Origin: Subtercola vilae
GTDB lineage: Bacteria > Actinomycetota > Actinomycetes > Actinomycetales > Microbacteriaceae
NCBI RefSeq assembly: GCF_004923255.1
Contig: NZ_QYRT01000034.1
Coordinates: 1-41,114, forward strand
Reading direction: 5' to 3'
Length of the DNA stretch: 41,114 nt
In this document: positions 1,010-17,848 of the stretch, in pieces
How the letters are laid out: each line of letters begins with the position of its first letter
How positions within the stretch are numbered: position 1 is the stretch's first letter
Notes under the pieces: generated by a model
Told to the model about the DNA's origin: nothing
The model's database searches: none
What the model saw: only the letters and a program-made list of their open reading frames with translations
Program-made: the position numbers and the translations under genes

Positions 1010-1025
1010 AGATTGTCGACAGTCT
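1010..1025. promoter_or_regulatory. Candidate GntR operator upstream of the transporter operon
   Basis: AGATTGTCGACAGTCT is a 16-bp palindrome with a single mismatched pair, centred on TGTCGACA. It fits the T.GT-N-AC.A style of FadR-subfamily GntR operators. The 11-mer TTGTCGACAGT within it (1013-1023) recurs exactly at 15583-15593 upstream of the aminotransferase operon. It lies 35 bp from the regulator's start and 97 bp from the binding-protein start. Confidence 0.7.
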
Positions 1026-1040
1026 GCAGATTTGTGCTAG
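1013..1040 (+). promoter_or_regulatory. Possible promoter of the transporter operon
   Basis: TTGTCG (1013-1018) and TGCTAG (1035-1040) with a 16-nt spacer resemble a sigma-70 -35/-10 pair. The -35 element would lie inside the palindromic operator, which is the expected arrangement for repression. Only sequence resemblance supports this. Confidence 0.35.
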
Positions 1041-1121
1041 CGTGGCTCAATCAACAGCGCTTCAGATCAGTCGGTTGCTTGCTCCCTCAGGAGTCCGACT
1101 CCAAGAGATTAGGGGTAATTC

Positions 1122-2765
1122 GTGAAACGAAGCTTGCGAGTCGGGCTGCTGGGAGCAGCTCTGGCGATCGCACTGACAGCCTGCACCGCAGCCGGCACCT
1201 CCGGCACCTCCAGCACCGCGGGGGGAGGCTCGGCCAGCGCCGCCACTGCCCTCTATGGCGGAACAATGACCACCGCCGCTGCGTCTGATCCGGAGACCTT
1301 CGACCCAGCCGTCTGTACCGGAGCCACCTGCTGGAACATCATGCGCATGGTGTTCGACCGCCTGTACGACTACGACGGTTCGACGAGCAACCTGAAGCTG
1401 CAGGCCGCAGCTGACTTCCCCTCTGTCAGCGCCGATGGCCTCACGTACACGATGAAGCTCAAGTCGGGCCTGACCTTCTCGAACGGGGCCCCTGTCACCG
1501 CGAAAGACGTGGCCTACTCGTACGCTCGCGTTCTCGACCCCGCCACCAAGGCCGGGCTCGCCGAGTTCTGGAAGGGCATCGCCGGTGCTGACGCGTACGC
1601 TGCGAACCCGACCGGTCTGCCGAGCGGCATCGTGGTCGTCGACGATCTGACCCTCGCTATCACCTTGACCGCACCGAACTCGTCGTTCAAGTACGTGCTG
1701 GCGATGCCGGCCGGCTCGATCATCCCGTCGGGTACCGGTTCGACCGTCAGCACCGCTCCTGTTGGTTCTGGCCCGTTCACGCTGGCGAAGTTCGAGCCCG
1801 GCGTGCAGGTCATGCTCGACCGCAACCCGAAGTACTGGGATTCGCCGCGGCCGTACGTCGACCACGTGCACATGATTCTCGGTGTCGACCCCGACAATCA
1901 GGTGCTGATGCTGCAGAAGGGCGACATCGACCTGATGGGCAGCCCCATTCCGCCGGCGAAGTTTCTTCAGGTGACCACAGACGCCAAGTACAAGGCCCAG
2001 ATCGTGACGATCGAGAAGCCGAGCACGTACTACCTGACGATGAACATGAACACGCCTCCGTTCAACAATCCGAAGGTTCGCGAGGCCGTTTCGTACGCTT
2101 TCGACCGCACGGGCCTGCTGAAGCTGGTCAATGGCCAGGGCAAGCCGGCGACCGAGTTCATTCCGCCGGGAGTGCTCGGCAACTCGGGCGAGACCATGAC
2201 GCAGGATCAGAACGTGGCCAAGGCGAAGTCGCTGCTGGCCGAAGCCGGCTACCCGAATGGCTTCGACACGCAGTTCTACGCCTGGAACGTGGCACCCTTC
2301 TCGGCACTCGCGCCGCAGATGCAGCAAGATCTGAAGGCCATCGGCATCAACGCCGACCTTCAGACTCTCGCACCGAACACGTTCTCTGAGCTGGCCGGTT
2401 CGGGCAAGGCGCCGCTGGCGCTGACCTTCTGGGTTGCCGACTACCCCGAAGGCTCTGACTTCCTCCAAGCGCTGCTCTCGTGTGCGACGGCTGTGCCCCA
2501 GGGCCAGAACTTCGCCTACTACTGCAACCCTGCGATGGATGCGGATGTCCAGCAGGCGCTCGCCGCAACCGACCCGGCCACGGCCACCGCGAAGTACACC
2601 GATGCGTCGAAGCTCATGCTCGCCGACAACCCGGTTGTTCCCCTGTACTTCGGAACCAAGACCGAGATCCGCGGTGCGAATGTGGGCAACTACTTCCCGC
2701 AGCCGATCTGGGGCTGGGACATGGCCGAGTACTGGAAGGCTGACGGTACGAGCTCTCGCTCGTAG
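1122..2765 (+). CDS. ABC transporter substrate-binding lipoprotein, peptide-type (SBP_bac_5)
   Basis: A 547-aa cluster-C binding protein of the dipeptide/oligopeptide/nickel class. The first 21 residues are a lipoprotein signal with lipobox LTAC (Cys21), then a Thr/Ser/Gly linker. The mature part carries the family's marks: YGGTMTTAAASDPETFDP near the start, YTMKLKSGLTFSNGAPVTAKDVAYSY around residue 110-135, and PKVREAVSYAFDR in the second lobe. It starts at GTG 1122 behind AGGGGT (1111-1116). It is the first gene of the operon and would capture the substrate outside the membrane for the permease/ATPase set that follows. The substrate cannot be read from sequence; the family binds peptides, opines, nickel chelates and some sugars. 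Confidence 0.93.
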   Translation: MKRSLRVGLLGAALAIALTACTAAGTSGTSSTAGGGSASAATALYGGTMTTAAASDPETFDPAVCTGATCWNIMRMVFDRLYDYDGSTSNLKLQAAADFPSVSADGLTYTMKLKSGLTFSNGAPVTAKDVAYSYARVLDPATKAGLAEFWKGIAGADAYAANPTGLPSGIVVVDDLTLAITLTAPNSSFKYVLAMPAGSIIPSGTGSTVSTAPVGSGPFTLAKFEPGVQVMLDRNPKYWDSPRPYVDHVHMILGVDPDNQVLMLQKGDIDLMGSPIPPAKFLQVTTDAKYKAQIVTIEKPSTYYLTMNMNTPPFNNPKVREAVSYAFDRTGLLKLVNGQGKPATEFIPPGVLGNSGETMTQDQNVAKAKSLLAEAGYPNGFDTQFYAWNVAPFSALAPQMQQDLKAIGINADLQTLAPNTFSELAGSGKAPLALTFWVADYPEGSDFLQALLSCATAVPQGQNFAYYCNPAMDADVQQALAATDPATATAKYTDASKLMLADNPVVPLYFGTKTEIRGANVGNYFPQPIWGWDMAEYWKADGTSSRS

Positions 2766-2799
2766 CGGCGCCACAGCGCCGCAGCCTCGCCACGAAACC

Positions 2800-2839
2800 G
2801 CGCCGTTGCCGGTGGCCCTCCTGCCATCGGCAACGGCGC
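2800..2839 (+). terminator. Hairpin between binding-protein and ATPase genes (attenuator or mRNA-stabilising)
   Basis: GCGCCGTTGCCG (2800-2811) pairs perfectly with CGGCAACGGCGC (2828-2839), and the stem continues inward through GTGGC/GCCAT (one G-U pair) to a 6-nt loop, about 17 bp in all. There is no U-run. In binding-protein operons such hairpins commonly cause partial termination or protect the upstream mRNA, so the binding protein is made in excess over the membrane parts. Confidence 0.7.
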
Positions 2840-2860
2840 TCCCTCCCGAAAGGAAGCGCA

Positions 2861-3877
2861 ATGTCAGCTCTTCTCGAAGTCTCCGATCTTGTTGTCGACT
2901 TTCCGACCGCTGCAGACGGTGTGTTCCACGCCGTCGATTCGGTCTCGTTCACAGTGAGTGCCGGCGAGCGAGTGGGCATTGTCGGCGAATCCGGTTCGGG
3001 TAAGTCACTCACCTCGCAGGCGCTCATGCGCCTCGTGCCCGAACCCGGTACGGTCTCGTCGGGCTCGGTGCTGTTCGAGGGCGCCGACGTGATGGCGTTC
3101 AGCGCGAAGAAGCTGCAGAAGTGGCGCGGTTCACAGACCGCCATGGTCTTTCAAGACCCGATGTCGAGCCTCAACCCGCTGATGCGTATCGGCCGTCAGA
3201 TCACCGAATCGTTGCAGAAGCACCTCGGCTTGTCGAAGGCCGAGAGCCGCACCCGCGCCATCGAACTGTTGCAGCGCGTAGGCATTCCCGATGCCGAGTC
3301 GCGCCTGAGCGACTTTCCGGGCGCGTTCTCGGGCGGCATGCGCCAGCGCGTGTGCATCGCCATCGCCACCGCCTGCTCGCCCAAGCTGATCATCGCCGAC
3401 GAGCCCACTACGGCCCTCGACGTGACCGTGCAGGCGCAGGTTCTCGACCTGCTCGACCACATGGCCACCGAGCTGAACACCGGCGTCATTCTGATCAGCC
3501 ACGATCTCGGCGTCATCTCGAGTTTCTGCGACCGCATCCTGGTCATGTACGCGGGCCGCATCGTCGAAGAGGGCACTGCCGAGCAGATCGTGGGCGACCC
3601 ACAGCATCCCTACACAAAGGCCCTGCTGAGTTCCATTCTGCGGCTCTCCGAACCCATCCCCCGGCGACTGAAGCCGATCAGCGGTGCCCCGCCCTTGGCG
3701 GGTCAGCGGGCATCCGGATGCTCCTTCGCCCCTCGATGCGCTCTGGCGATCGATGCCTGCAGAACCCTCGACCCTGCTCTCGTGCCCGCGTCGAACGCCA
3801 GCCCGGGCCAGAGGGTGGCGTGCGGAGTGGCCGCACCTGCAGCCTTCGAACTGGCAGATGAGGTGACCGCAGCATGA
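2861..3877 (+). CDS. ABC transporter ATP-binding protein, DppD/OppD type
   Basis: A 338-aa nucleotide-binding subunit of the peptide-transporter class. Walker A is GESGSGKS (42-49), the signature FSGGMRQRV starts near 156, Walker B LIIADEP lies at 176-182, and the switch His is in LISHDLG. The C-terminal oligopeptide-transporter extension is present with GCSFAPRC and a later Cys. AAAGGAAG just upstream is a good ribosome site. It overlaps the next ATPase gene by ATGA. It would pair with the DppF-like subunit as a heterodimer that powers the two permeases downstream. Confidence 0.94.
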   Translation: MSALLEVSDLVVDFPTAADGVFHAVDSVSFTVSAGERVGIVGESGSGKSLTSQALMRLVPEPGTVSSGSVLFEGADVMAFSAKKLQKWRGSQTAMVFQDPMSSLNPLMRIGRQITESLQKHLGLSKAESRTRAIELLQRVGIPDAESRLSDFPGAFSGGMRQRVCIAIATACSPKLIIADEPTTALDVTVQAQVLDLLDHMATELNTGVILISHDLGVISSFCDRILVMYAGRIVEEGTAEQIVGDPQHPYTKALLSSILRLSEPIPRRLKPISGAPPLAGQRASGCSFAPRCALAIDACRTLDPALVPASNASPGQRVACGVAAPAAFELADEVTAA

Positions 3878-4869
3878 GCACCGTTCTTTTGGAGGTCGAC
3901 GACCTCGAGGTCACCTTTCGGCGCTCGGCCGGCCCCGGTCGACGGGCGGCATCGGTTCCGGCAGTGCGTGGGGTGAGTTTTCAGCTCGAGGCTGGAACCA
4001 CGCTCGGCATCGCCGGGGAGTCCGGCTCGGGCAAGAGCACCATCGCCCGCACGCTGATGGGCATCAACAAGCCCTCTGGCGGGTCGATGCGGCTGAACGG
4101 CGCCGATGTGGGGGCTCTGCGCGGCCGGGAACTTGCTCAGTACCGCCAGACAATGCAGATGATCTTTCAAGACCCGTACGACTCGCTCGACCCACGCATG
4201 AAGGTGTCAGAGACGCTGCTCGAGGCGATCAAGCTGCGAAAGAACAAGCCGGCCAGCCCGTTGAACGAGGTCTACCAGCTGCTCGAGAAGGTAGGGCTGT
4301 CGAAGAGCTTCGCCTCCCGGCGACCGCGCGAGCTCTCGGGCGGCCAGCGCCAGCGGGTGTCGATCGCCCGTGCGCTGTGCGTCGACCCGCGCCTCATTCT
4401 CTGCGACGAGGCCGTCTCGGCACTCGACGTCTCGGTGCGTGCGCAGGTGCTGAACCTGCTGAAGGACCTGCAGGAAGACCTGGGGCTCGCGTACCTCTTC
4501 ATCTCGCACGACCTTTCGACGCTGCGGTTCATGGCCGACTACGTGGGCATCATGTACCTCGGCAAGATCGTCGAGCTCGGCACCCGTGACGAGATCTTCG
4601 AGCGCCCCCAGCACCCGTACACGCGTGCCCTGCTCTCGGCTGTGCCCGAACCCGTGGTCATCGACCGAACGGTTCGGTTGCCGCGGGTGCGGCTGACGGG
4701 TGAGCCGCCGAGTTCGACCAACCCGCCGACGGGCTGCAGCTTTCACCCGCGCTGCCCGCTGGCCCAGGAGATCTGCCGAACGACCGCCCCCGCCCGCCGG
4801 GTGACGTCGTCGGGCCAGCTCGCGGCCTGCCACTTCGCCGAACCCGAATTGGTGGTGGCAGAAGCATGA
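3874..4869 (+). CDS. ABC transporter ATP-binding protein, DppF/OppF type
   Basis: A 331-aa second ATPase of the importer. Walker A GESGSGKST has its Lys at residue 54; the signature is LSGGQRQRV; Walker B is LILCDEAVSALDV, where the usual Pro after DE is replaced by Ala; and LFISHDLSTLRFM holds the switch His. The C-terminal extension carries GCSFHPRCPLAQEIC. It overlaps both neighbours by 4 nt (ATGA), so translation is probably coupled. Its role is ATP hydrolysis on the inner face of the membrane together with the preceding subunit. Confidence 0.94.
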   Translation: MSTVLLEVDDLEVTFRRSAGPGRRAASVPAVRGVSFQLEAGTTLGIAGESGSGKSTIARTLMGINKPSGGSMRLNGADVGALRGRELAQYRQTMQMIFQDPYDSLDPRMKVSETLLEAIKLRKNKPASPLNEVYQLLEKVGLSKSFASRRPRELSGGQRQRVSIARALCVDPRLILCDEAVSALDVSVRAQVLNLLKDLQEDLGLAYLFISHDLSTLRFMADYVGIMYLGKIVELGTRDEIFERPQHPYTRALLSAVPEPVVIDRTVRLPRVRLTGEPPSSTNPPTGCSFHPRCPLAQEICRTTAPARRVTSSGQLAACHFAEPELVVAEA

Positions 4870-5789
4870 GCGAGGCAGTTCCCGCCGCGGCGGCCGTCGA
4901 CCCGCTCGCCCTCGGTGACAAGCCGGTGCGAGCCCGCGAAGTGCTGCGCAGCCTGAAGAAAGACCCTGCGGCCCTCGCTTCGATCGTGGTTCTGCTCGCG
5001 CTCGCTGTGATCGCTCTCGCCGCCCCGCTGCTCTCGCCGCACGACCCCCTGCAGACGTTTCCCGACATCGGGCTCGGCCCGCAGGGCCAGCCGCTGCCGC
5101 CCGGAACCCCCGGCTTTCTGCTCGGCACCGACGCGCTCGGGCGCGACGTGCTCTCTCGCCTCATCTACGGCGCGCAGGTCTCGCTCGTGATCGGCATCGT
5201 GGCCAACGGGCTCGCCACGGCTTTCGGAGTTCTGGTCGGCATCGTGGCCGGGTACTTCGGCGGCGTGGTCGAGGCCATTCTGATGAGAATCACCGACGTG
5301 GTCATTTCGTTTCCGATCCTGCTGCTGTGCACTGCGCTGATTGCCGTGACCACGCGCAGCACGTTCAACGTCATCATCGTGATCGCACTCATCTACTGGA
5401 CGACGCTCGCCCGCATCATCCGGAGCATGGTGGTGTCGTTGAAGGAGCGCGAGTTCGTGGTGGCCTCGCAGACGCTCGGGCTCTCGCACCGCTCGATCAT
5501 GTGGCGGCACATTCTGCCGCACCTGGTGCCGGCCATCATCGTGTACACGACGCTCGGTGTGGCCTCGAGCATTCTGATCGAGAGCGCGCTGTCGTTTCTC
5601 GGCATCGGGGTTCCCATACCGCAACCCTCGTGGGGCCAGATGATCTCCGACGGCAGTACGTACTTTCAGATCGCCCCGTGGATGCTCTTCATTCCTGGCA
5701 TCTGCCTCATTCTGACCGTGATGGCGTTCAACCTGGTGGGCGACTGGCTCTCTGACATGTTGAACTCCCAGACCCCGCTGGCGAGGTGA
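4866..5789 (+). CDS. ABC transporter permease, DppC type
   Basis: A 307-aa inner-membrane permease of the BPD_transp_1 class with the DppC/OppC N-terminal segment. The first membrane helix is at about 38-60. The diagnostic LLGTDALGRDVLSRLIYGAQ lies near 88-107, and the EAA loop (VVASQTLGLSHRSIMWRHILPH) precedes the last helices. The gene overlaps the second ATPase by 4 nt and is followed after 4 nt by the other permease. Its position after the ATPases, and the C-before-B order, differ from the classical dppABCDF order but are seen in many catabolic importers. Confidence 0.93.
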   Translation: MSEAVPAAAAVDPLALGDKPVRAREVLRSLKKDPAALASIVVLLALAVIALAAPLLSPHDPLQTFPDIGLGPQGQPLPPGTPGFLLGTDALGRDVLSRLIYGAQVSLVIGIVANGLATAFGVLVGIVAGYFGGVVEAILMRITDVVISFPILLLCTALIAVTTRSTFNVIIVIALIYWTTLARIIRSMVVSLKEREFVVASQTLGLSHRSIMWRHILPHLVPAIIVYTTLGVASSILIESALSFLGIGVPIPQPSWGQMISDGSTYFQIAPWMLFIPGICLILTVMAFNLVGDWLSDMLNSQTPLAR

Positions 5790-5793
5790 CGGC

Positions 5794-6726
5794 ATGATCT
5801 GGTGGATTCTGCGACGGCTCGGGCAGATGCTGATCGTTCTGTTCGGCGTCGTCAGCCTGGCCTTTCTGTTGGTCTATGCCGTGCCGGCCGACCCTGCGTC
5901 GACCCTGGCCGGCCCGAATGCGAGCGCGGCGACGATCGCGTCGATCCACGCGCAGCTCGGGCTCGACAACCCCCTCTGGCAGCAGTACTTCGGCTTCATC
6001 GGCCGCCTGCTCACCGGCGACCTCGGCACATCGTATGTGCTGCGCGAGACACCGGTCTTCGGGCGAATCGTCGCGGCGCTGCCGACCACGCTGATGGTGG
6101 CGGTCGGCGGAATCCTGTGGCAGATCATCCTCGGGGTGCCCGCCGGCATCTTCGCCGCATACCGCCGTGGCAGCTGGGTCGACCGGCTGATCACCTTTCT
6201 CTCGCTGATCGGGCTCTCGGCTCCGCCGTTCTGGCTGGGGCTGCTGCTCATCTACTACTTCGCGTTCACCTGGGGCCTGTTTCCGCTGAACGGACTCGGT
6301 AGCCCGGTGTTCTGGTACCTCGTACTGCCCACCTTCACCCTCGGTGCCGGCGGTGGTGCGTGGTACGCCCGCATGACCCGCACGAACATGATCGAGACCC
6401 TCGACTCGCCGTTCGTACGCATGGCGCGGGCGAAGGGGATGCCCGAACGCGTCATTCTCTGGCGACACAGCTTCAGGCACATCGCTATTCCGTTGCTCAC
6501 CATGATCGGCCTCGACTTCGGCTACTTTCTGGGCGGCGTGGTGATCGTCGAGACGGTCTTCGGCCTGAACGGCATCGGCCGGCTCGCTTTCGACGCCATC
6601 TCGAACCTCGACACCCCGATGATCGTGGGCACAGTGCTCTTCGCCGCGATCTTCATCGTGGTCGTGAACTTCATCGTCGACCTTCTGTACTCCGTGATCG
6701 ATCCGCGCGTGCGGCTGAACAGCTGA
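5794..6726 (+). CDS. ABC transporter permease, DppB type
   Basis: A 310-aa permease. The N-terminal DppB-like motif MIWWILRRLGQMLIVLFGVV leads into a periplasmic-side loop with LGLDNPLWQQYFGFI. The EAA loop (RMARAKGMPERVILWRHSFRH) lies at about 207-230, and the C-terminal VIVETVFGLNGIGRLAFDAI is typical. With the DppC-type subunit it forms the translocation path for whatever the lipoprotein binds. The intergenic distance of 4 nt indicates the same transcript. Confidence 0.93.
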   Translation: MIWWILRRLGQMLIVLFGVVSLAFLLVYAVPADPASTLAGPNASAATIASIHAQLGLDNPLWQQYFGFIGRLLTGDLGTSYVLRETPVFGRIVAALPTTLMVAVGGILWQIILGVPAGIFAAYRRGSWVDRLITFLSLIGLSAPPFWLGLLLIYYFAFTWGLFPLNGLGSPVFWYLVLPTFTLGAGGGAWYARMTRTNMIETLDSPFVRMARAKGMPERVILWRHSFRHIAIPLLTMIGLDFGYFLGGVVIVETVFGLNGIGRLAFDAISNLDTPMIVGTVLFAAIFIVVVNFIVDLLYSVIDPRVRLNS

Positions 6727-6752
6727 CGCACCCCACCTAAGGAGATTCACCC

Positions 6753-7940
6753 ATGAACACACCCAAACTTCGCGTGGCCGTCATCGGCGCTGGCCGCTGG
6801 GCCGTACGTTCGCACATCCCCGGCTGGCAGCGCGACCCGCGCGTGGAGGTGGTCGCGCTCGCCGAGATCAACGAAGAAGCCCTGGCCGCGGCCGCCGAGG
6901 AGTTCGGCATCGCCCGCGCCGTGACCGACTACCGCGAGTTGATCAACGACCCCGACATCGACGTCATCGACGTTGCCACCGGCAACCACATGCACTTCGA
7001 GATCTCGATGGCGGCCATCGCCGCCGGCAAGCACGTGCTCTGTGAGAAGCCCGTCAACAGCGACTACCTCGAAACGCGCCGCGCCGCCGCCCTGGCCGCC
7101 GAGATGGGTGTGAAGACCAAGCTCGGCTTCACCTTCAGGTTCGCCCCGGCCATCCAGTTCGCCAAGCACCTCATCGACACTGGGTACATCGGCGAGCCGT
7201 ACATGTTCAACGGCTACGAGCAGAACAGCCAGTGGATCGACCCGCAGACCCCGCTTCGCCAGGTCGACCTCGAGGCTTCGCCCGACCGCATCGCCGTCTC
7301 GTCGATCGAAGGCTATGGCGCACCGATCATCGACATCATGCACTGGTGGGTGGATGCCCCGATGACGAGTGTCGTCGGAACCATGCGCAACTTCGTGCCA
7401 GAGCGCATGGTGCGCGACACCGGCAAGATGCAGGCGATGAACATCGACGACGGCGACATGTGGATCGCCGAATTCGAGAAGAACCGGCTCGCGTCGATTC
7501 AGTCGTCGTACGTCACGGTGGGCAACTACCCCGGCATCGAGGCGCGCATCTACGGCTCCGAGGGTGCGATCATCGTGCGCCTGGTCGAAGAGGCTGGCAT
7601 CTGCCAGACCATCAAGGTGGCCAAGAAGGATTCGGTCGAGTTCGTCGAACTCGAGATTCCGCAGGAGTTCTTTCCTGAGGGCGGCGTGTCGACCGAGCAG
7701 TGGCCGTTCCTCTTCTACTCGAACCTGGTCAAAGACTTCGCCACCGAGATTCTGAGCGGCGACGACTTCAACCAGGGCAACTTCGACCAGGGCGCGCTGG
7801 TGCAGGAGACCATCAACGCCTTCGAGAAGTCGTTCCGCACGCGTGCGTGGTGCGACTTCCCACTGGCCGTCGAGGCCGCTGTTGTCGAGGGTGCTGCCGC
7901 CGGCGACGGTGCCGAGAACCTCGAACTCGCTCGCTCATGA
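6753..7940 (+). CDS. Gfo/Idh/MocA-family NAD(P)-dependent oxidoreductase
   Basis: A 395-aa protein with an N-terminal Rossmann fold (VAVIGAGRWA, glycines 12 and 14) and the family's CEKP motif (E98-K99-P100), whose Lys is usually catalytic. A C-terminal beta-sheet domain follows. AAGGAGA upstream is a strong ribosome site. Family members oxidise or reduce sugars, inositols, and in some cases imines or amino sugars with a tightly bound nicotinamide. Being encoded between an importer and TldD/E, it probably acts on the imported molecule or a product of its cleavage; its substrate cannot be inferred more closely. Its stop overlaps the tldD start (ATGA). Confidence 0.9.
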   Translation: MNTPKLRVAVIGAGRWAVRSHIPGWQRDPRVEVVALAEINEEALAAAAEEFGIARAVTDYRELINDPDIDVIDVATGNHMHFEISMAAIAAGKHVLCEKPVNSDYLETRRAAALAAEMGVKTKLGFTFRFAPAIQFAKHLIDTGYIGEPYMFNGYEQNSQWIDPQTPLRQVDLEASPDRIAVSSIEGYGAPIIDIMHWWVDAPMTSVVGTMRNFVPERMVRDTGKMQAMNIDDGDMWIAEFEKNRLASIQSSYVTVGNYPGIEARIYGSEGAIIVRLVEEAGICQTIKVAKKDSVEFVELEIPQEFFPEGGVSTEQWPFLFYSNLVKDFATEILSGDDFNQGNFDQGALVQETINAFEKSFRTRAWCDFPLAVEAAVVEGAAAGDGAENLELARS

Positions 7941-9460
7941 GCGCCGAGCGCACTCTGGCGCGGCCGAGCGTCGGCCACGCGGCGCATCACTGGGGCGATC
8001 TGGCGAACGACGCTGCGGCGGCCGAACTGCTGCAGTTCGCCCTGGCGGCCCTGGATGCCCGGGGTGTGAGTTACGCCGACGTTCGCCTCATCGAGGCCGA
8101 AGAACTGCGGCTCTACACCACACTCGATGCCGGGCTCGATGAGCGAATCGAGAACAACCTGGGCGTGGGCATCCGGGTGCTCGTCGACGGCAGCTGGGGG
8201 TTCGCCTCTGTACCGGTTTCGAGCACGGCCGACATCACCTTGGCAGCCGAACGGGCGCTCAGCAACGCGCGGGCTGCGGGTTCGGTGGCGAACGCGTACC
8301 GCACCGAATTGCCGCCCCTGCCGGCAGCGAGCGGCAGCTACCTCAGCCCGGTCGAGACCGACCCGTTCGCGGTGGCTGCCTCAGAGCGCTACGAGCTGCT
8401 CGGGCAGATTCTGGCGGCGGCCAGCGCGCCAGTCGAGATCGTGATGGCGCAGGCCGGCCTGAACGCGAAACGCCAGCACCGGCACTTCGCCAACACTGAG
8501 GGGTCGGTGCAGCACCAGCACTTCATCGAGAGCGGTGCCATGGCGCTCGTGAATGCGGTCGGTAACGGCACGATGCAGCGGCGCTCGTTTCCGAACTCGT
8601 TCCACGGCAACACTGCTCAGGCCGGCTGGGAGTACGTCGAGGGCCTCGACATGGTCGCCGAGGCCGACCGCATCGGCCGGGAGGCGGTCGAACTGCTGAC
8701 CGCCCCGCTCGCCCCGGCGGGCTACGCCGACTTCATCATCGGGCCGGCGCAGATGGCCCTGCAGATCCATGAATCGACCGGTCATGCCCTCGAGCTCGAC
8801 CGCATTCTGGGCGACGAGGCGAACTACGCCGGCACGTCGTTCATCACGGCCGACGCGGTGGGAACCCTGCAGTACGGATCAGAGGCAGTGAACATCACCT
8901 CCGACCCGACGGTGCCCGGCACTCGAGGCTCCTTCGGTTTCGACGATGAAGGGGTGCCGGCCTCCCGGCAGCCGCTCATTTCGCGGGGAGTGATCACGAA
9001 CTTTCTCTCGACCCGTGACTCGGCGGCGCGCATCGGTGCAGAGACGACGGGTGCGGCGCGCTCTGACGGCTGGGGCTACCTGCCGGTCTGCTTCGCGACG
9101 AACGTCTTTCTCGAGCCCGGCGAGGGTACGACGGCCGAGCTCGAAGAGCGGCTCGGCGACGGGTTCTACGTCGACGACAACCGCAGCTGGTCGATCGACG
9201 AACGGCGCCACAACTTTCAGTTCGGCACCGAGGTGGCGTACGAGGTGAAGAACGGTCGGCGCGGCCAACTGCACCGCGGCTTCTCCTACGGTGGTACGAC
9301 TGTCGAGTTCTGGAACTCGGTCGAAGCCGTGGCCGGCCCGTCGGAGTTCAAGGCTTTCGGCATGCCCTGTGGCAAGGGTGAACCGAAGCAGTGGGGTTTT
9401 CTCGGCCACGGGGCATCGCCCACGCTGGTGCGCAACGTTCGAATCGGAGTGGACAGATGA
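7937..9460 (+). CDS. tldD: TldD-type metalloprotease subunit
   Basis: A 507-aa TldD/PmbA-family protein, slightly longer than the usual roughly 480. The metal motif HExxxH is intact as HESTGH (H278, E279, H283), and the C-terminal Cys ligand of TldD is present in PCGKG (C478). TldD with TldE forms a heterodimeric protease that degrades unstructured peptides and trims some ribosomal peptides such as microcin B17; that is known for the family. The start at 7937 is chosen because it overlaps the previous stop (ATGA); the frame is open further upstream, but that part is antisense-like Arg-rich sequence. The gene sits in a catabolic importer operon, unlike the usual stand-alone tldD. Confidence 0.92.
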   Translation: MSAERTLARPSVGHAAHHWGDLANDAAAAELLQFALAALDARGVSYADVRLIEAEELRLYTTLDAGLDERIENNLGVGIRVLVDGSWGFASVPVSSTADITLAAERALSNARAAGSVANAYRTELPPLPAASGSYLSPVETDPFAVAASERYELLGQILAAASAPVEIVMAQAGLNAKRQHRHFANTEGSVQHQHFIESGAMALVNAVGNGTMQRRSFPNSFHGNTAQAGWEYVEGLDMVAEADRIGREAVELLTAPLAPAGYADFIIGPAQMALQIHESTGHALELDRILGDEANYAGTSFITADAVGTLQYGSEAVNITSDPTVPGTRGSFGFDDEGVPASRQPLISRGVITNFLSTRDSAARIGAETTGAARSDGWGYLPVCFATNVFLEPGEGTTAELEERLGDGFYVDDNRSWSIDERRHNFQFGTEVAYEVKNGRRGQLHRGFSYGGTTVEFWNSVEAVAGPSEFKAFGMPCGKGEPKQWGFLGHGASPTLVRNVRIGVDR

Positions 9461-10881
9461 CAGACACGGCCAACGACATCTTCGCCCCCGCGTTCGGTGG
9501 CGACCGCGCGACGAGCGCACTCGAAGAGGCACTCGAATCGGCACCGGCCGACCGCATCGAGGCGTTCATCACCTCCCGGCGAGGCGACTTCACCCGGTTC
9601 GCCGGCCAGCGCATCCACCAGAGCCAGGCCATTGACGAGGTGCAGATCATGGTGCGCGCCGAGGTCGACGGCCGGGTATCGCGTGCCGCGGCCAGTTCGT
9701 TCGGTGCGCTGCGGGCCGCCGTCGACCGCAGCTGCGCCGCCGCAGCGCAGCAGGCGGCAGACAAGGTGACGCCGGCTCCCCGGCAGACGCCGTTGGCCGA
9801 CCCTGGGGCCGATCTCGGTGCGAGCTCGTTCGACTCGGGCATCCTGTGGGGAGAAGACACCGCTGCATGGTCGGTCGGTGAGCACGCTCGCCTGGCCGAC
9901 CGCGCGATGAACGAAGCCCAGGCCCTCGGCGGTGTGGCGGCCGGCATGTTCGGCCGAGCGGTGACCGAGGTGGCGTTCCACGATCGGGAGGCGCACCTCT
10001 CCCGGCACGCCTTCGCGTCAGAGGCGCAGGGCTCGTTGACTGTGCGCATCGACGATGGGTCGTCGCACTGGAAAGACCTCACCCGCTTCTCAGACCGGCT
10101 CGGCGCTGACGCCGCGATCGACCGAACGCTTTCTCAGGCCTCTCGTACCCGGGGCCGCGCGAAACTCGAGCCCGGCAGATACGACGTCGTGCTCGGCCCG
10201 CTGGCCGCCGGTGAGCTGCTCGACTTCTTCGGTGCCTTCGGGTTCACCGGGTCTGCCCTCGGGGCCGGCTTCGGTACCGTGGCCACCCGCGGCGGCGAAC
10301 AGGTCGCCTCTCCCCTGGTCTCGGTGCACGACGATGCGACGGCCGACATCGGCCTGCCGTTTCCGTTCGACTTTCAGGGCACCTCGAAGCGTGACGTGCC
10401 GATGATCTCGAACGGGCGCGCCCAGTCGGTGGTCACCGACCGCGAGACCGCGTTCGCGCTGGGCTCCGAGTCGACCGGCAACTTCCACATCGCCCGCGAA
10501 GAGGCTCCGCACGCCATTCCCATGAACGTCGTGCTGCGGGCATCCGACTCCACCGAAGACGACCTCATCGCCGGCATCGAGAACGGCGTGTACCTGCAGC
10601 GGTTCTGGTACACCCGCACGGTCGATCCGGTGAACACCACCATCACCGGCGTCACCCGCGACGCCTGCTTCATGATCGAGAACGGGCGCATCGCCTACCC
10701 GGTCGAGTCGATGCGGTTCACGATGAGTGTTCTGGATGCCCTGGCCCGCGTCGACGGCGTGGGCACCGATTCGCTCAGCCAACCGCTCATGAACGTCTTC
10801 AACGGCTCGGCTTCGTCGCCGGCCATCCGGGTGCGCGGTTTCTCGCTGGGCACCGCCCCGGTCTCGAAAGGAAACGCCTGA
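9457..10881 (+). CDS. TldE/PmbA-type protease partner subunit
   Basis: A 474-aa PmbA/TldE-like protein. It has the TldE-type fold segments (for example VVLGPLAAGELLDFFG near residue 245-260 and RDACFMIENGRIAYPVESMRF near the C-terminus) but lacks the HExxxH motif, as TldE subunits do. It overlaps tldD by 4 nt and would form the TldD/E heterodimer with it. The start is the ATG at 9457 (ATGA overlap), not the GTG or ATG codons further upstream inside tldD. The stop shares one base with the following ATG (TGATG). Confidence 0.9.
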   Translation: MTDTANDIFAPAFGGDRATSALEEALESAPADRIEAFITSRRGDFTRFAGQRIHQSQAIDEVQIMVRAEVDGRVSRAAASSFGALRAAVDRSCAAAAQQAADKVTPAPRQTPLADPGADLGASSFDSGILWGEDTAAWSVGEHARLADRAMNEAQALGGVAAGMFGRAVTEVAFHDREAHLSRHAFASEAQGSLTVRIDDGSSHWKDLTRFSDRLGADAAIDRTLSQASRTRGRAKLEPGRYDVVLGPLAAGELLDFFGAFGFTGSALGAGFGTVATRGGEQVASPLVSVHDDATADIGLPFPFDFQGTSKRDVPMISNGRAQSVVTDRETAFALGSESTGNFHIAREEAPHAIPMNVVLRASDSTEDDLIAGIENGVYLQRFWYTRTVDPVNTTITGVTRDACFMIENGRIAYPVESMRFTMSVLDALARVDGVGTDSLSQPLMNVFNGSASSPAIRVRGFSLGTAPVSKGNA

Positions 10882-11834
10882 TGCCCCTCGCGACCAACGC
10901 CGACCGGCTCGTCACCCAGACCCTGACCGGCGAGGTGTGGCCTCCGCTGGCCGACCGGCACGGCTACCGGGTCGATGCCGACGGGCATCCGTTTCTGCTG
11001 CCCGGCATGGGCGGGGTGAGCATGGCCGCGCACATCGGCCAGGCCGCCACAGGGTATGCCAGCGACCACCTCGAACCGGGGCTGTCGATTAGGCACGCCA
11101 ACGAAGGGGCGAACGCCGCGCTGCAGTTTCTGAGCTGCGTGGGCAACCGGGTGACCGTGCGGTCGGGCCCGGCGACGGGCGCCACCGGAACAGTGCTCGG
11201 GCAGCACGCGTACGTGCTCGCCGACTTCGCCGACGACGTGCTCAGCCTCGTCACGACGGGTGACCGCGTGAGCGTCGACGCCGTGGGCCAGGGGCTGCGG
11301 TTTCTCGATCACCCCGACGTGCGGGTCAAGAACCTCGACCCGGCGCTGGTCGACCGCCTGCCGTTCAGTACCGCGCCCGACGGCACGCTGGCGGTCGAGG
11401 TGGCCCGGCGCGTGCCCGCAGAGGCGGCCGGCGCCGGCGGCGGAATGCTGTCGGAGTTCGCCAACACCGACCTGATGGGTGCGTACCCGGGGCTCTCAGA
11501 AGACCTGTCGCTGGGGCTCGAGACGCTGCGCATCGGCGACCTCGTGCTGCTCGAAGACCAAGACCACTCGTACGGCCGCGGCTACCGGCCCGGCTGGGTG
11601 ACGGTGGGCCTCATCTCCACGGGGGAGTGCCGGTTGTTCGGGCACGGCCCAGGCCCCTCGACTCTGCTGTCGGGGCCCGCGTCGGCCTTCACCGTCACCG
11701 AGAGCGACTCGGCCAACCTGGCCAACGCGCTGTCGCCGGCCGCTGCCGCACACTTCGTGCCGGGCGCTGCTGCTGCCGCCACTGCTGCCGCCACCTCACA
11801 CCCCACCTCGAACCCGGAGCGCACCCATGCCTGA
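10881..11834 (+). CDS. DUF4438-like protein, first of two tandem paralogues
   Basis: A 317-aa protein of unknown biochemical function that I assign to DUF4438 from overall pattern. Marks are GYRVDADGHPFLLPGMGGV (about 32-50), DHLEPGLSIRH, CVGNRVTVRSGPATGATGTV (about 90-110), VDAVGQGL, FANTDLMGAYP and GYRPGWVTVGLISTGECRLFGHGPGPSTLLSG in two parts near the end. No signal peptide or membrane helix is present. The C-terminal tail is Ala/Thr-rich low-complexity sequence. It shares at least eight collinear motifs with the next gene, so the two arose by duplication. It overlaps that gene by 8 nt. A role in handling the imported substrate is inference from operon position only. Confidence 0.75.
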   Translation: MPLATNADRLVTQTLTGEVWPPLADRHGYRVDADGHPFLLPGMGGVSMAAHIGQAATGYASDHLEPGLSIRHANEGANAALQFLSCVGNRVTVRSGPATGATGTVLGQHAYVLADFADDVLSLVTTGDRVSVDAVGQGLRFLDHPDVRVKNLDPALVDRLPFSTAPDGTLAVEVARRVPAEAAGAGGGMLSEFANTDLMGAYPGLSEDLSLGLETLRIGDLVLLEDQDHSYGRGYRPGWVTVGLISTGECRLFGHGPGPSTLLSGPASAFTVTESDSANLANALSPAAAAHFVPGAAAAATAAATSHPTSNPERTHA

Positions 11835-12753
11835 CCTCGTCGCGAACAATCTGCTGGGCATCGCCGAGCACGCCGCACTCACGCCGATGGTGGCGTACCG
11901 CATCGATCGCGACGGGCACCCCTACGTGCCCATCGGCGACGGCGGCATCGTGCAGGGCGTGCGGCTGGGTGATTCGGTGTTCGCCACCGATGGAGACCAT
12001 GTGGCCCCAGGGGTCACGCTGGTGCATCCGGATGCCGGTGCCCGGTTCGCCCTCACAGCCTTCGCCTGCATCGGCAACGAGGTGATCGTGCGGTCGGGGC
12101 TCGCCGCCGGCAGCATCGGGCGGGTGACCGGCAAGCGCGGCGAGAGCGGGCGGGTGATCGCGCTGCTCGACGACGACGCCATGGCGAAGCTGCTGCCGGG
12201 CGATCAACTGAGCGTGCGTGCGGTGGGCCAGGGCTTCGTTCCCGACGGTGTGCCGCAGGGTGTCGCGGTGCTGAACGTCGACCCCGAGCTGTTCGCGCTG
12301 CTGCCGTTCGCGGTTACCGGTGCTGGTGACGACGATGCCGATACCGGTGCTGGTGCGGTCGCTTCAGATGCCGTGTCGGTCACGGTCGCGGTCGCGGGGG
12401 TGCTGCCGAGCAAGGTCTGTGGCAACGGCATCGGGCGCCCCGCGCAGATGTGGGATGTCGACCTGGCCGTGGTCGCCGACTCACCCGACCTCGGAGGCCG
12501 AACCATGCGCCTCGGCGAACTCTGGGCCATTGAACACCTCGATGTGCGCCACAACATGGGCTACCGGCGCGACTGGGTCACCTTCGGAATCATCTGCCAC
12601 GGCGGCTCTCCGCTGCCGGGGCACGGGCCGGGCCTGGTGCCCATCGTCACCGGCCCGCGGAGCGCGTTCCGTCTCGAGGTTCAGGATGCCGACGCCGCGC
12701 CCGCACTGACCGACGCCGTGCTGGCGGCTCTCCCCTCCAGGGCCCGCTCATGA
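11827..12753 (+). CDS. DUF4438-like protein, second tandem paralogue
   Basis: A 308-aa paralogue of the preceding product: AYRIDRDGHPYVPIGDGGI matches its GYRVDADGHPF, and GDHVAPGVTLVHPDAG, CIGNEVIVRSGLAAGSIGRV, VRAVGQGFVPD and GYRRDWVTFGIICHGGSPLPGHGPG match in the same order. The central part (about 160-180) has an Asp/Ala/Gly-rich insert. It has no recognisable catalytic motif and no signal peptide, so it is cytosolic. The two copies differ enough that they may form a heteromer or have split functions. It overlaps the dehydrogenase gene by ATGA. Confidence 0.75.
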   Translation: MPDLVANNLLGIAEHAALTPMVAYRIDRDGHPYVPIGDGGIVQGVRLGDSVFATDGDHVAPGVTLVHPDAGARFALTAFACIGNEVIVRSGLAAGSIGRVTGKRGESGRVIALLDDDAMAKLLPGDQLSVRAVGQGFVPDGVPQGVAVLNVDPELFALLPFAVTGAGDDDADTGAGAVASDAVSVTVAVAGVLPSKVCGNGIGRPAQMWDVDLAVVADSPDLGGRTMRLGELWAIEHLDVRHNMGYRRDWVTFGIICHGGSPLPGHGPGLVPIVTGPRSAFRLEVQDADAAPALTDAVLAALPSRARS

Positions 12754-13772
12754 CCACGAAGGTTCTCATCTCCACCTACCTCGAGCCTGCCCTGGTCGAC
12801 CTGATCAGAGCGGAGCCCGACGTCGAGGTGCTCTACGCCCCCCAACTGGTGCCCGTGCCGCGGTATGCCTCCGACCACACCGGTGTCGCGCTCCAACTGG
12901 GCGCCGACGACGAGAAGCGCTGGCTCGACCTGCTCGCCCAGGCCGACGTGGCATTCGACTTCGACTGGCGCGACCCCGCGGCGCTGCCGGTGAATGCTCC
13001 CCGGCTGAAATGGGTGCAGGCCACGAGTGCCGGCATCGGTGCCTTCATGAAGCGCACCGGCCTCGACTCCACGGGGCTGACAGCGACCACTGCGGCCGGC
13101 GTGCACGCCATTCCGCTCGCGGAGTTCGCCCTCACGGGGGCGCTGCACTTCGTGAAGGGTGTTCCGCACCTGAAGAACCAGCAGCGCCGCCGCGAATGGC
13201 GGCGGTACACGACCCGGCAGCTGGCGGGGATGCGGGTCTCGGTTCTCGGCATCGGGGGCATGGGCGGCAACGTCATCGCGGTGTTCAACGCCCTCGGTGC
13301 GCGGGTCACCGGCATCGGCCGGGTCGGCGGGTCGTACGAGCTGCCGGCGGGTGTCGAGCAGAGCGATATCGGCCGCCTCGCCGAGGTACTGCCGCGCACC
13401 GACATCCTGATTCTCTGCACGGCCCTGACGCCCGAGACCGAGGGGCTGATCGGCCGCGACCAGATCGCGCTGCTGCCCGACGGCGCCATCGTGGTGAACA
13501 TCTCGCGGGGCCAGGTCATCGACGAGCAGGCCCTCATCGATGCGCTCCAAAGCAAAAAGCTGCTCGGGGCGGCCCTCGACGTCGTCAACCACGAACCCCT
13601 CGCCGACGACTCACCGCTCTGGCAACTCGAGAACGTGATGTTGTCGCCGCACTCCGCCTCGACCCTCGCCTCAGAGAACGAGACGCTCACAGCGCTGTTC
13701 ATCGACAACCTGAGGCGCTGGCGGGCCGGCGAGCCATTGAAGAACCTCTTCGTGAGCGAGCGGGGCTACTGA
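12750..13772 (+). CDS. D-2-hydroxyacid dehydrogenase
   Basis: A 340-aa NAD(P)-dependent D-isomer-specific 2-hydroxyacid dehydrogenase. The nucleotide-binding motif GIGGMGGN lies near residue 166. The catalytic triad of the family is visible: Arg in NISRGQVI, Glu in DVVNHEPL and His in LSPHSAS. Such enzymes interconvert 2-oxoacids and D-2-hydroxyacids. As the last gene of the operon, next to an aminotransferase operon, it could reduce the 2-oxoacid that the aminotransferase makes, or oxidise a D-hydroxyacid released from the substrate. About 50 bp separates its stop from the convergent RidA stop. Confidence 0.9.
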   Translation: MTTKVLISTYLEPALVDLIRAEPDVEVLYAPQLVPVPRYASDHTGVALQLGADDEKRWLDLLAQADVAFDFDWRDPAALPVNAPRLKWVQATSAGIGAFMKRTGLDSTGLTATTAAGVHAIPLAEFALTGALHFVKGVPHLKNQQRRREWRRYTTRQLAGMRVSVLGIGGMGGNVIAVFNALGARVTGIGRVGGSYELPAGVEQSDIGRLAEVLPRTDILILCTALTPETEGLIGRDQIALLPDGAIVVNISRGQVIDEQALIDALQSKKLLGAALDVVNHEPLADDSPLWQLENVMLSPHSASTLASENETLTALFIDNLRRWRAGEPLKNLFVSERGY

Positions 13773-13824
13773 GCCGCGCTCGGCGGGCGTTGAGCTGCAG
13801 AGCTTCTGCCGGAACGGCGTCGCT

Positions 13825-14262
13825 CTAGCGGGCAGCGCTCGGCTCGACCACACGCCGCGCAATCAGCTGCACCTCGACAGGGGCGCCGCCGGGCAGTGAG
13901 GCGACCCCCACGGTGGCCCGAACGGGCAGCTCGGTGCCGGGCATCCGGTCGCCCACGACGGCGCTCGCGGCATCGGCGATGTGGCTGTGCCGCGTGAACT
14001 CGGGCGTGCTCGCCACATAGACCGTCAGCGAGAGCACCTCGGCGATCGTCTCGCCCGGGCTCAGGATGCTCGCCGCCGCGTCGAGCGCCCGAACCGTTGC
14101 CAGCGCGGTGAGCTGGCGCCCCTCGTCGTCGCCGATGCCTGCACCGAGAAGTCCGGTCGTCACCAGGGCTCCGTCGCGGCGCGGGGTCATGCCGGCGGTG
14201 AAGACCAGCTCCCCCAGCGCGCGGGCGACGGAGTACGACCCCGCCGCCTGGGGCGCGCTCAC
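13825..14262 (-). CDS. RidA-family (YjgF/UK114) enamine/imine deaminase-like protein
   Basis: A 145-aa RidA-fold protein: VFTAGMTPRRDGALVTTGLLG in the first half, the ALDAAASILSPGETIAEVLSLTVYV segment in two parts, and ELPVRATVGVASLPGGAPVEVQLIA at the end. The usual catalytic Arg of RidA is in LPVRATVGV. RidA hydrolyses reactive enamines and imines released by PLP enzymes, which fits its coupling to the upstream aminotransferase. I chose the GTG at 14262 because GTGA overlaps the aminotransferase stop; longer upstream readings enter Arg-rich antisense-like sequence. Confidence 0.88.
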   Translation of the reverse strand: MSAPQAAGSYSVARALGELVFTAGMTPRRDGALVTTGLLGAGIGDDEGRQLTALATVRALDAAASILSPGETIAEVLSLTVYVASTPEFTRHSHIADAASAVVGDRMPGTELPVRATVGVASLPGGAPVEVQLIARRVVEPSAAR

Positions 14263-15521
14263 GACGTGATTCCGGCGCGGGCCGCGAACGCCCCGAGGCA
14301 GGTGACCATGAGGTCGAGAGCGGCCTCCCACTCGGCTTCGTCGCGGGCGTAGCAGATACGAAAGTGGCCGGTGCCGCGGGCCCCGAACTGGTAGCCGGGC
14401 GACACGATCACCTGCGCCTCGCGCTGCAGGGCCGCTGCGATCTCGACATCGGTCGCGCCGAACGCCGTCACGTCGACGAAGAGATACGCCGTTGCCTTCT
14501 GGGGCGTCAGAACGAGGCCCGCAACGGTGCTGAGCTTCTCGATCGTCAGGTTCTTCAGGTTCTCGAGCTCGATGATGCGTTCGGCGAGAAACGCGTGGTC
14601 GTCGACGAGCCAGCGGGCCAGCAGGTGCTGCGAGTACGCGGGAGCTCGCAGCGACGTCATGGCGAGGCACTGCTCCACCGTGTCGATGACAGCGTCGGGC
14701 GCCACGATGACCCCGATGCGAAACCCGCTCATCGACTCGGTCTTCGACGGCCCGAGCAGCGTGATCGAGCGTTCGGCCATGCCCGGCTGCACGCGCAGGT
14801 GGTGAAAGGGAGTGTCTTCGTAGACGAGCCGGCTGTAGAGCTCGTCGACCATGACCAGAAAGTCGCCTTCGACCGCGAGCTCGGCCACGCGGGCGATCAT
14901 CGCTTCGGAGTACACCGCACCGGTGGGGTTGTTGGGGTGGGAGAAGAGCAGCAGCTTCGGTTTCTGCAGAATGAGTTCTTCGAGCACGTCGAGGTCGAGG
15001 CTCGGCTCGGCTGAGGCGAAGACCAGCGGCACCCGCTCGACGCGCGCGCCGAGGAACGCGAGGATGCGTTCGCAGAACAGGTAGTCGGGGTCGGCGAGCA
15101 GCACGAGGTCGCCCTCGTTCACCAGGGCGGCGAGCGTGGTGAATAGTGCCCCCTGGGTGCCGGGTGTCAGGGCGAGGTTGCTCGAGGCCACAGGCGATCC
15201 CAGAAATGCGCTGATGGGTGCCGACAGTGCCTCGAGCACCGTCGGGTCACCGCGGTACGGAGAATACGCCCAGGCTCCGTTGTCGATGGCGGCTGCCATG
15301 TCGGCCGCGACCCACGGTGGCGGCGGAAAGCGGACAGTGTCGAAGTGGGTGGTGTCGAGCAACCCGTTGCCGCCGCCGTCGAGCCGCAGAGACAGGTCGG
15401 CCGCCCGCACCGAGACCCCGGGGGCCGCCTCGCGCTGGGGGAGGTGGGTTCGAAGCACACGCTCGCTCGGCGAGCCGGGCATCTTGTCAACCGAATCCGT
15501 CAGGGGGGCGGTTGTGGTCAT
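14259..15521 (-). CDS. PLP-dependent aminotransferase, class I/II
   Basis: A 420-aa fold-type I aminotransferase. The PLP Lys is K260 in GPSKTESMSGFRIG; N197-G201 in HPNNPTG, D226 in VDELYS and R268 in the GFRIG motif complete the usual PLP contacts. AGGAG (15527-15531) is 5 nt upstream of the ATG. It heads a two-gene operon with RidA and is preceded by a copy of the same operator sequence that precedes the transporter operon, so it probably supplies the deamination step for amino acids liberated by the TldD/E pair. Substrate specificity is not predictable. Confidence 0.92.
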   Translation of the reverse strand: MTTTAPLTDSVDKMPGSPSERVLRTHLPQREAAPGVSVRAADLSLRLDGGGNGLLDTTHFDTVRFPPPPWVAADMAAAIDNGAWAYSPYRGDPTVLEALSAPISAFLGSPVASSNLALTPGTQGALFTTLAALVNEGDLVLLADPDYLFCERILAFLGARVERVPLVFASAEPSLDLDVLEELILQKPKLLLFSHPNNPTGAVYSEAMIARVAELAVEGDFLVMVDELYSRLVYEDTPFHHLRVQPGMAERSITLLGPSKTESMSGFRIGVIVAPDAVIDTVEQCLAMTSLRAPAYSQHLLARWLVDDHAFLAERIIELENLKNLTIEKLSTVAGLVLTPQKATAYLFVDVTAFGATDVEIAAALQREAQVIVSPGYQFGARGTGHFRICYARDEAEWEAALDLMVTCLGAFAARAGITS

Positions 15522-15574
15522 AGGGGCTCCTAGCTCTGTGACTCGTTGGCGAAGGGCATCGTGCGCTAACGAAG

Positions 15575-15593
15575 ACTGTCGTTTGTCGACAGT
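15575..15593. promoter_or_regulatory. Second candidate GntR operator (aminotransferase operon)
   Basis: TTGTCGACAGT (15583-15593) is identical to the operator core at 1013-1023. It is also part of a larger inverted repeat, ACTGTCG (15575-15581) and CGACAGT (15587-15593). It lies 62-72 bp upstream of the aminotransferase start on the reverse strand, inside the promoter region shared with the divergent ppx-type gene. Confidence 0.65.
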
Positions 15594-17789: not shown

Positions 17790-17848
17790 GGCCTGTGCGG
17801 TGCGGCGCTGGTGGCCTGCGCGTCAGTGGGGAGTGGTTGACTGGGGGC

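What the first reader, a model, noticed from the sequence alone, without database searches (positions are those of the whole stretch)
1010..15593. Importer + TldD/E + DUF4438 pair + oxidoreductases + aminotransferase/RidA: a candidate undescribed peptide-like compound utilisation system
Directly seen: a GntR regulator, a full five-part peptide-type ABC importer, Gfo/Idh/MocA oxidoreductase, an intact TldD/TldE protease, two DUF4438-like paralogues and a D-2-hydroxyacid dehydrogenase in one nearly gapless operon, facing an aminotransferase-RidA operon with a matching operator. Known: TldD/E cleaves unstructured peptides and matures some ribosomal peptides; RidA quenches intermediates of PLP enzymes. 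Inference: the cassette imports and dismantles a modified peptide or amino-acid conjugate outside the normal peptidase route, with the DUF4438 proteins as the unknown step. I know of no described pathway with this gene set.
Basis: partly seen in the sequence, partly recalled or inferred. Interest (0 to 1): 0.85.

Follow-up and report, generated by a model that had tools for sequence, protein, structure and literature searches.

The report
Conserved uptake-and-breakdown cassette with DUF4438 pair
A soil or plant bacterium carries a self-contained set of genes that seems to import a small amino-group-bearing compound and break it down, and at its centre sit two partner proteins of unknown function that occur together.

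Summary
The shared operator recurs in relatives.

I found the cassette in 33 distinct actinobacterial genomes. A+B are paired in 33 of 33. GFO is in the cluster in 32 of 32 evaluable, 2HADH in 30 of 30 evaluable, TldE in 30 of 33. Among 99 genomes (own included) the GFO orthologue occurs in exactly the 4 with over-cut-off DUF4438.

TldD/E is therefore accessory; the steady core is GFO + DUF4438A/B + 2HADH + an importer. The most likely reading is an inducible, patchily distributed catabolic cassette for a small compound with a free alpha-amino group (peptide, amino-acid amide or aminoacyl conjugate). The substrate is not identified. DUF4438's function stays unknown; no paper in the held library names it, and I found no function for its one solved relative, TM1086. 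This is a new variant of a known kind.

The parts
328..975 (-). GntR/FCD transcriptional regulator, divergent from the importer
   Evidence: Pfam FCD 4.9e-19, GntR 1.4e-15; divergent of SBP in the 6 Microbacteriaceae of 7 where the stretch was fetched: window, L010/L035, L033, L034/L140, L011/L141, L012/L142
1013..1023 (+). operator-like palindrome TTGTCGACAGT before the importer operon
   Evidence: conserved about 110 bp before the SBP start in relatives
1122..2765 (+). SBP_bac_5 solute-binding protein
   Evidence: Pfam 2.6e-92; closest solved chain 8upi, 338 bits, next 163; WVAD motif
2861..3877 (+). ABC importer ATPase, OppD/DppD type
   Evidence: ABC_tran + oligo_HPY; D/F assignment by position is mine
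3874..4869 (+). ABC importer ATPase, OppF/DppF type
   Evidence: ABC_tran + oligo_HPY; D/F assignment by position is mine
4866..5789 (+). ABC permease, OppC/DppC type
   Evidence: BPD_transp_1 + OppC_N
5794..6726 (+). ABC permease, OppB/DppB type
   Evidence: BPD_transp_1 + BPD_transp_1_N
6753..7940 (+). Gfo/Idh/MocA dehydrogenase (core of the cassette)
   Evidence: Pfam 1.9e-27; EKP motif in the window and 24 of 24 relatives examined; in 4 of 99 genomes, the same 4 as over-cut-off DUF4438
7937..9460 (+). TldD-type zinc metallopeptidase subunit
   Evidence: PmbA_TldD domains; HESTGH and PCGKG motifs, also in 21 of 21 relatives examined; only match in this genome at E<=1e-10
9457..10881 (+). 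TldE-type partner subunit without HExxxH
   Evidence: PmbA_TldD_3rd 2.7e-41; HExxxH in 0 of 21 relatives examined
10881..11834 (+). DUF4438 paralogue A
   Evidence: PF14505 2.6e-43, PF20999 5.3e-30; TM1086 2.6e-55
11827..12753 (+). DUF4438 paralogue B
   Evidence: PF14505 1.3e-32; profile match to A over 266 columns, E 6.2e-50
12750..13772 (+). D-isomer-specific 2-hydroxyacid dehydrogenase
   Evidence: Pfam 1.1e-46; in 30 of 30 evaluable cassettes (28, plus L020 and L129)
13825..14262 (-). RidA/Rid-family protein
   Evidence: Pfam 5.2e-12 on a longer frame; Arg in PVRATVGV kept in 5 of 5 relatives examined
14259..15521 (-). class I/II PLP aminotransferase
   Evidence: Pfam 2.9e-43; lysine motif PSKTESMSGFRIG, pattern also in 11 of 11 relatives examined
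15583..15593 (+). second operator, before the aminotransferase-RidA unit
   Evidence: conserved in relatives

Best explanation
It is an inducible catabolic cassette. Step 1 (inferred from families): the Opp/Dpp-type ABC importer takes up a small compound with a free alpha-amino group, such as a short peptide, an amino-acid amide or an aminoacyl conjugate. Step 2 (inferred, accessory): the TldD/TldE heterodimer cuts its amide or peptide bond; lineages without TldD/E use a substrate that does not need this cut, or another enzyme. Step 3 (obligate core; the chemistry is inferred and the co-occurrence is shown): the Gfo/Idh/MocA dehydrogenase oxidises or reduces one part of the molecule, and the DUF4438A/B pair, probably one heteromeric enzyme, carries out the next conversion. 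Step 4 (inferred): the PLP aminotransferase turns the amino-acid part into a 2-keto acid, RidA clears the imine/enamine by-product, and the 2-hydroxyacid dehydrogenase reduces the keto acid. Step 5: the GntR/FCD protein controls both units through the shared TTGTCGACA operator (operator conservation shown, binding inferred).
For: Gene content and tight spacing. Conservation in 33 distinct genomes: A+B 33 of 33, GFO 32 of 32 evaluable, 2HADH 30 of 30 evaluable, TldE 30 of 33. Family-HMM scans that do not depend on closeness to this window: over-cut-off DUF4438 in 4 of 99 (own included), 1 of 396 of a phylum draw, the own genome, 9 of 250 in the family of Asanoa, 7 of 297 in that of Actinokineospora, 5 of 186 in that of Humibacillus. 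Of these 25 genomes, 24 hold the cassette and one (G701) a remnant. GFO orthologue in exactly the 4 DUF4438-positive genomes of 99. Catalytic motifs kept in the relatives examined. Shared operator conserved at similar spacing. An aminotransferase is seen in 23 of 33 fetched clusters and a RidA in 11. AT, 2HADH, RidA and a GntR (55% identical to the window's) form one separate small cluster in the genome of L014 (L143), linking those three, with the caveat that this AT match carries one TAG. Pairwise distances of the cassette proteins correlate at r 0.72-0.98 (no vertical-descent control). The SBPs of the window and 14 of 19 relatives examined keep W-x-x-D, the site that holds the alpha-amino group in OppA/DppA (recalled, not from a call).
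Against: No substrate or enzymatic step is shown. TldD/E is absent from the clusters of L014, L015 and L019, which weakens a necessary peptide cut. The four Pseudonocardiaceae SBPs examined, and that of a second importer in Streptosporangium saharense, have Gln in place of the Asp, so ligands may differ between lineages. The window's aminotransferase is replaced in 8 genomes by a different aminotransferase with an SDR and a DHDPS-family gene, without RidA seen, so the late steps are not fixed; in 10 of 33 no aminotransferase lies in the stretch fetched. GFO's nearest solved relatives with a named activity are sugar or polyol enzymes, which fits sugar chemistry as well as amino-acid chemistry. 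DUF4438 activity is unknown, and that A and B form one complex rests on pairing alone.
Confidence: 0.5

Rival explanations
1. Sugar or sugar-acid (glycoside) catabolism: the importer carries a glycoside or sugar derivative, GFO oxidises a ring carbon, DUF4438A/B does the following elimination or hydrolysis, and 2HADH plus the DHDPS-family protein finish a keto-acid branch; TldD/E and the aminotransferase handle an amino substituent only.
For: GFO scores best against levoglucosan dehydrogenase and inositol 2-dehydrogenase models, all far below their cut-offs, and its nearest solved relatives with a named activity are sugar or polyol enzymes. Type II operons hold a DHDPS-family gene with aldolase/dehydratase relatives, also below cut-off. 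FCD-type GntR proteins often sense sugar acids (recalled).
Against: An aminotransferase lies in 23 of 33 fetched clusters and a RidA in 11; W-x-x-D in the SBP; no glycosidase, kinase or sugar-isomerase family among the window's cassette genes.
Confidence: 0.25
2. Uptake and hydrolysis of L-amino-acid amides, with DUF4438A/B in the place that the FmdA_AmdA amidase takes in the Mesorhizobium system.
For: Closest solved binding protein by far is 8upi (338 bits against 163 for the next). That 8upi is the amino-acid-amide binder of an FmdA_AmdA-linked operon is recalled; the library holds no such paper.
Against: Profile comparison finds no homology of DUF4438 to FmdA_AmdA (17 columns, probability 0.3% for A against the short type, 1.2% for B against the long type; the other two pairings were not run). 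FmdA_AmdA in the own genome lies on another contig. It does not explain GFO and 2HADH as steady members.
Confidence: 0.12
3. Maturation or biosynthesis cluster for a ribosomal or other peptide natural product, with TldD/E as the leader protease or accessory pair.
For: TldD/E matures microcin B17 (PMC5810440, abstract in listing). TldD-family pairs occur in lincosamide clusters (LmbIH/LmbQ; PMC4351081, passages).
Against: No precursor gene fits inside the main operon: all its gaps are 95 bp or less. There is a complete importer with SBP, and no exporter or peptide-modifying family among the cassette genes. The cassette exists without TldD/E in three genomes.
Confidence: 0.05
4. Import and destruction of a toxic peptide-like natural product (self-protection) instead of nutrient use; same chemistry, different purpose.
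For: Patchy distribution among actinobacteria; TldD/E and RidA suit reactive or peptide-like compounds (inference).
Against: An importer would raise the inside dose; the 2HADH and aminotransferase end steps look nutritional (inference).
Confidence: 0.08

Closest known systems
Opp/Dpp/Gsi-type peptide and glutathione ABC importers (SBP_bac_5)
   Same: five-part architecture, SBP_bac_5 binding protein, oligo_HPY ATPases, W-x-x-D motif
   Different: no NCBIfam equivalog cut-off is reached (best GsiB 180.7 of 594 bits); joined by operon to GFO/TldD/E/DUF4438
Mesorhizobium L-amino-acid-amide uptake system (8upi; identity recalled)
   Same: closest solved binding protein
   Different: no FmdA_AmdA amidase among the cassette genes; DUF4438A/B has no detectable homology to it
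E. coli TldD/TldE metalloprotease
   Same: HExxxH subunit plus HExxxH-less partner
   Different: far below the TldD equivalog cut-off (86.8 of 513 bits); sits in a catabolic-looking operon and is absent from 3 of 33 cassettes
Thermotoga maritima TM1086 (3dcl, 3n99), DUF4438
   Same: same family over about 280 residues; A shares with TM1086 polar residues that B has changed, among them E65, H109, H144 and C250
   Different: here duplicated into an A/B pair; at A108 and A195 it is B that keeps the TM1086 residue, and A differs from TM1086 at several of its own invariant positions, e.g. Q82 and H229; I found no function for TM1086
Lincosamide LmbIH/LmbQ clusters
   Same: TldD-family pair in a cluster that also lists an oxidoreductase (LmbZ) and an aminotransferase (LmbS) (PMC4351081, passages); that LmbZ is Gfo/Idh-type is recalled
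   Different: biosynthetic cluster; no DUF4438 or SBP importer in the passages read

Membership tests
DUF4438 (PF14505/PF20999) | both domains over the curated cut-off | tested here: met
   A 147.4 and 104.3 bits, B 112.8 and 63.0 bits against 24.9 and 27
TldD/TldE metallopeptidase | HExxxH zinc motif and Cys ligand in TldD; none in TldE | tested here: met
   21 of 21 relatives examined for TldD, 0 of 21 for TldE. The roles of the residues are recalled
TldD/TldE metallopeptidase | NCBIfam equivalog cut-off for TldD | tested here: not met
   122 of 635 and 86.8 of 513 bits: a distant subfamily, not the orthologue
TldD/TldE metallopeptidase | peptidase activity as heterodimer | not testable with these tools
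   needs protein
Opp/Dpp-type importer | SBP_bac_5 + two BPD_transp_1 permeases + two oligo_HPY ATPases | tested here: met
Opp/Dpp-type importer | Asp that holds the ligand's alpha-amino group | tested here: inconclusive
   W-x-x-D present in the window and 14 of 19 relatives examined, Gln in the 5 SBPc sequences; the role is recalled
Levoglucosan/inositol dehydrogenase (Gfo/Idh/MocA) | NCBIfam equivalog cut-off | tested here: not met
   130.6 of 650 and 121.4 of 355 bits
FmdA_AmdA amidase | sequence homology of DUF4438 to FmdA_AmdA | tested here: not met
   (two of four profile pairings run); fold not compared
RiPP cluster | precursor peptide gene in the operon | tested here: not met
   gaps in the main operon of 95 bp or less; other places not searched
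Rid deaminase | catalytic Arg | tested here: met
   PVRATVGV, 5 of 5 relatives examined; the role is recalled
Rid deaminase | NCBIfam TIGR00004 cut-off | tested here: not met
   38.9 of 106.25 bits

The most novel reading that the evidence does not exclude
DUF4438A and DUF4438B form one heteromeric enzyme of a new class, its conserved site shared between two diverged subunits. It acts obligatorily on the product of a dedicated Gfo/Idh/MocA dehydrogenase in an undescribed catabolic pathway spread by horizontal transfer among soil and plant actinobacteria.
Probability: 0.4. Interest if true: 0.75.

Novelty: new variant of a known kind. Interest (0 to 1): 0.55.

Why it matters
DUF4438 has a solved structure (TM1086: 3dcl, 3n99), but I found no function for it, and no paper in the held library uses the name. 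The steady link to one dehydrogenase and one 2-hydroxyacid dehydrogenase gives a concrete assay plan: co-purify A and B, feed the GFO product, watch the knock-out metabolome. It would also give a catabolic role to a TldD/E pair.

Tried and rejected
FmdA_AmdA link: tried because the nearest solved SBP is 8upi; profile comparison gave nothing, so it is not claimed. RiPP reading: rejected for lack of room for a precursor and presence of an importer. TldD/E as the core: rejected after three clusters without it were found. Operator as statistically rare in this one genome: not supported; only its conservation across genomes counts. Plasmid carriage: tblastn of DUF4438A found no match in 72,556 plasmid records at E <= 0.01. 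Literature: DUF4438, 0 papers; TM1086, 7 papers (listing only; six are not on this protein by title, one is a crystallisation survey, PMC2661377, that I did not open); TldD with TldE and biosynthesis, 26 listed of 28; a mix of TldD, Gfo and others, 15 listed of 27; TldD with RidA and others, 0. None of the listed ones is on such a cassette by title and start of abstract. Promoter/terminator scan gave nothing above chance.

Rows dropped before counts: L053 was fetched from a wrong contig and left out. L036 (sub-cut-off match in G013) and L131 (remnant in G701, fragment of B only) are not among the 33. From alignments A1 and A2 (23 rows each, of 27 A and 27 B including the window) I left out L033-L035 and, because my extension ran over a stop, L030 for A and L025 for B. 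The motif counts cover the relatives L010-L034 found (L035 left out), not the later ones. L029's GntR stretch was not fetched. Unevaluable in the counts, cut by contig ends: L024 for GFO and TldD; L022, L024 and L031 for 2HADH.

Full report
OBSERVATION. The main operon runs from 1122 to 13772 with nearly no gaps; the RidA-aminotransferase unit converges on it from 15521 to 13825. The GntR/FCD gene lies at 328-975, just outside the given interval. The two operator copies are exact 11-mers.

ARCHITECTURES. Type I, Microbacteriaceae: as in the window, with GntR divergent in 6 of 6 fetched (the seventh, L029, not fetched); L010/L035 ends after 2HADH. Type II, Micromonosporaceae and Streptosporangium carneum: 2HADH, DHDPS-family, SDR, a different aminotransferase, SBP importer (56-61% SBP identity), GFO, TldD, TldE, A, B, GntR; eight genomes show the aminotransferase-SDR-DHDPS block. 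S. saharense has 2HADH and the importer directly, and a window-type aminotransferase (60%) with another importer on a second contig. Type III, Intrasporangiaceae: another peptide-type importer, GFO, GntR, a second Gfo/Idh gene, 2HADH, TldD/E, A, B, a luciferase-like (F420/LLM-type) oxidoreductase and LysR in varying order, with aminotransferase and RidA near in L016, L017/L055 and L032 (not seen in the stretches fetched for L136 and L137). Type IV, Pseudonocardiaceae: GFO, TldD/E, A, B, GntR facing 2HADH, aminotransferase and a third importer in six of seven (L031 is cut off), with an AstE/AspA-family gene and RidA beyond it in L061 and L065. Type V, three MAGs: importer genes, GFO, 2HADH, A, B, a GntR and a second Gfo/Idh gene, no TldD/E. 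In one of these genomes (L014) a separate contig carries GntR, aminotransferase, 2HADH and RidA together (L143). In all, an aminotransferase is seen in 23 of 33 fetched clusters and a RidA in 11.

REGULATION. The operator is conserved at similar distance before the SBP gene in relatives and, in a related form, before the aminotransferase. The 11-mer itself is no rarer in the genome than its reversed control.

DUF4438. A and B are 36% identical to each other and 39% and 34% to TM1086. Residues common to A, B and TM1086 include D62, C86, N89, D128, Q137, N151, D197, D228, R236 and H255 (numbers of A). A and TM1086 share E65, H109, H144 and C250, which B has changed to Ala/Ser, Arg, variable and Ser. 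Against a simple 'A active, B inactive' reading, B and TM1086 share K at A108 and D at A195, where A has Q and N, and A differs from TM1086 at other positions invariant in A (e.g. Q82, D115, H229, R233). The pair may thus share or split the ancestral site (inference). A profile of A finds only TM1086 with significance among solved chains.

SUBSTRATE. SBP: nearest solved chain 8upi. Its identity as an L-amino-acid-amide binder is recalled; the searches found no paper on it. W-x-x-D is present in the window and in 14 of 19 relatives' SBPs examined, Gln in the 5 SBPc sequences. GFO scores far below every equivalog cut-off listed. Nothing fixes the substrate; an amino-group-bearing conjugate is the best compromise between the importer, TldD/E, aminotransferase and RidA on one side and the sugar-type dehydrogenase on the other.

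VERDICT. Real, conserved, and undescribed as far as the searches in one open-access library can tell. It is built from known kinds of parts plus one pair of unknown function.

Noticed in passing
L131 (G701:C29): Remnant of the cassette: only a B fragment with an in-frame stop and its GntR gene, suggesting loss after gain.
   Followed up: partly
L143 (5,585-base contig of the L014 genome): GntR (55% to the window's), aminotransferase, 2HADH and RidA in one separate cluster; the aminotransferase match carries one TAG.
   Followed up: partly
L080, L081, L082 (also L083, L084): Second TldD, 44-45% identical in three Micromonosporaceae and 36-37% in two Streptosporangium genomes; its neighbourhood was not looked at.
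   Followed up: no
L060, L061, L065: The window-type aminotransferase also travels with another nickel/peptide-type importer and an AstE/AspA-family gene (nearest model DoeB, far below cut-off).
   Followed up: partly
window 15653-16585: Ppx/GppA phosphatase gene follows the cassette; the window starts at its contig's first base, so the left flank and an insertion site could not be examined.
   Followed up: no
window 16775-19390: Open frame holding an M18 aminopeptidase near the cassette; probably a separate housekeeping gene.
   Followed up: no
window 20565-21158 (-): Sigma-70-family (ECF-like) factor whose frame overlaps by 4 bases a 345-aa frame (19531-20568) without a Pfam match at E <= 1e-5.
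   Followed up: no
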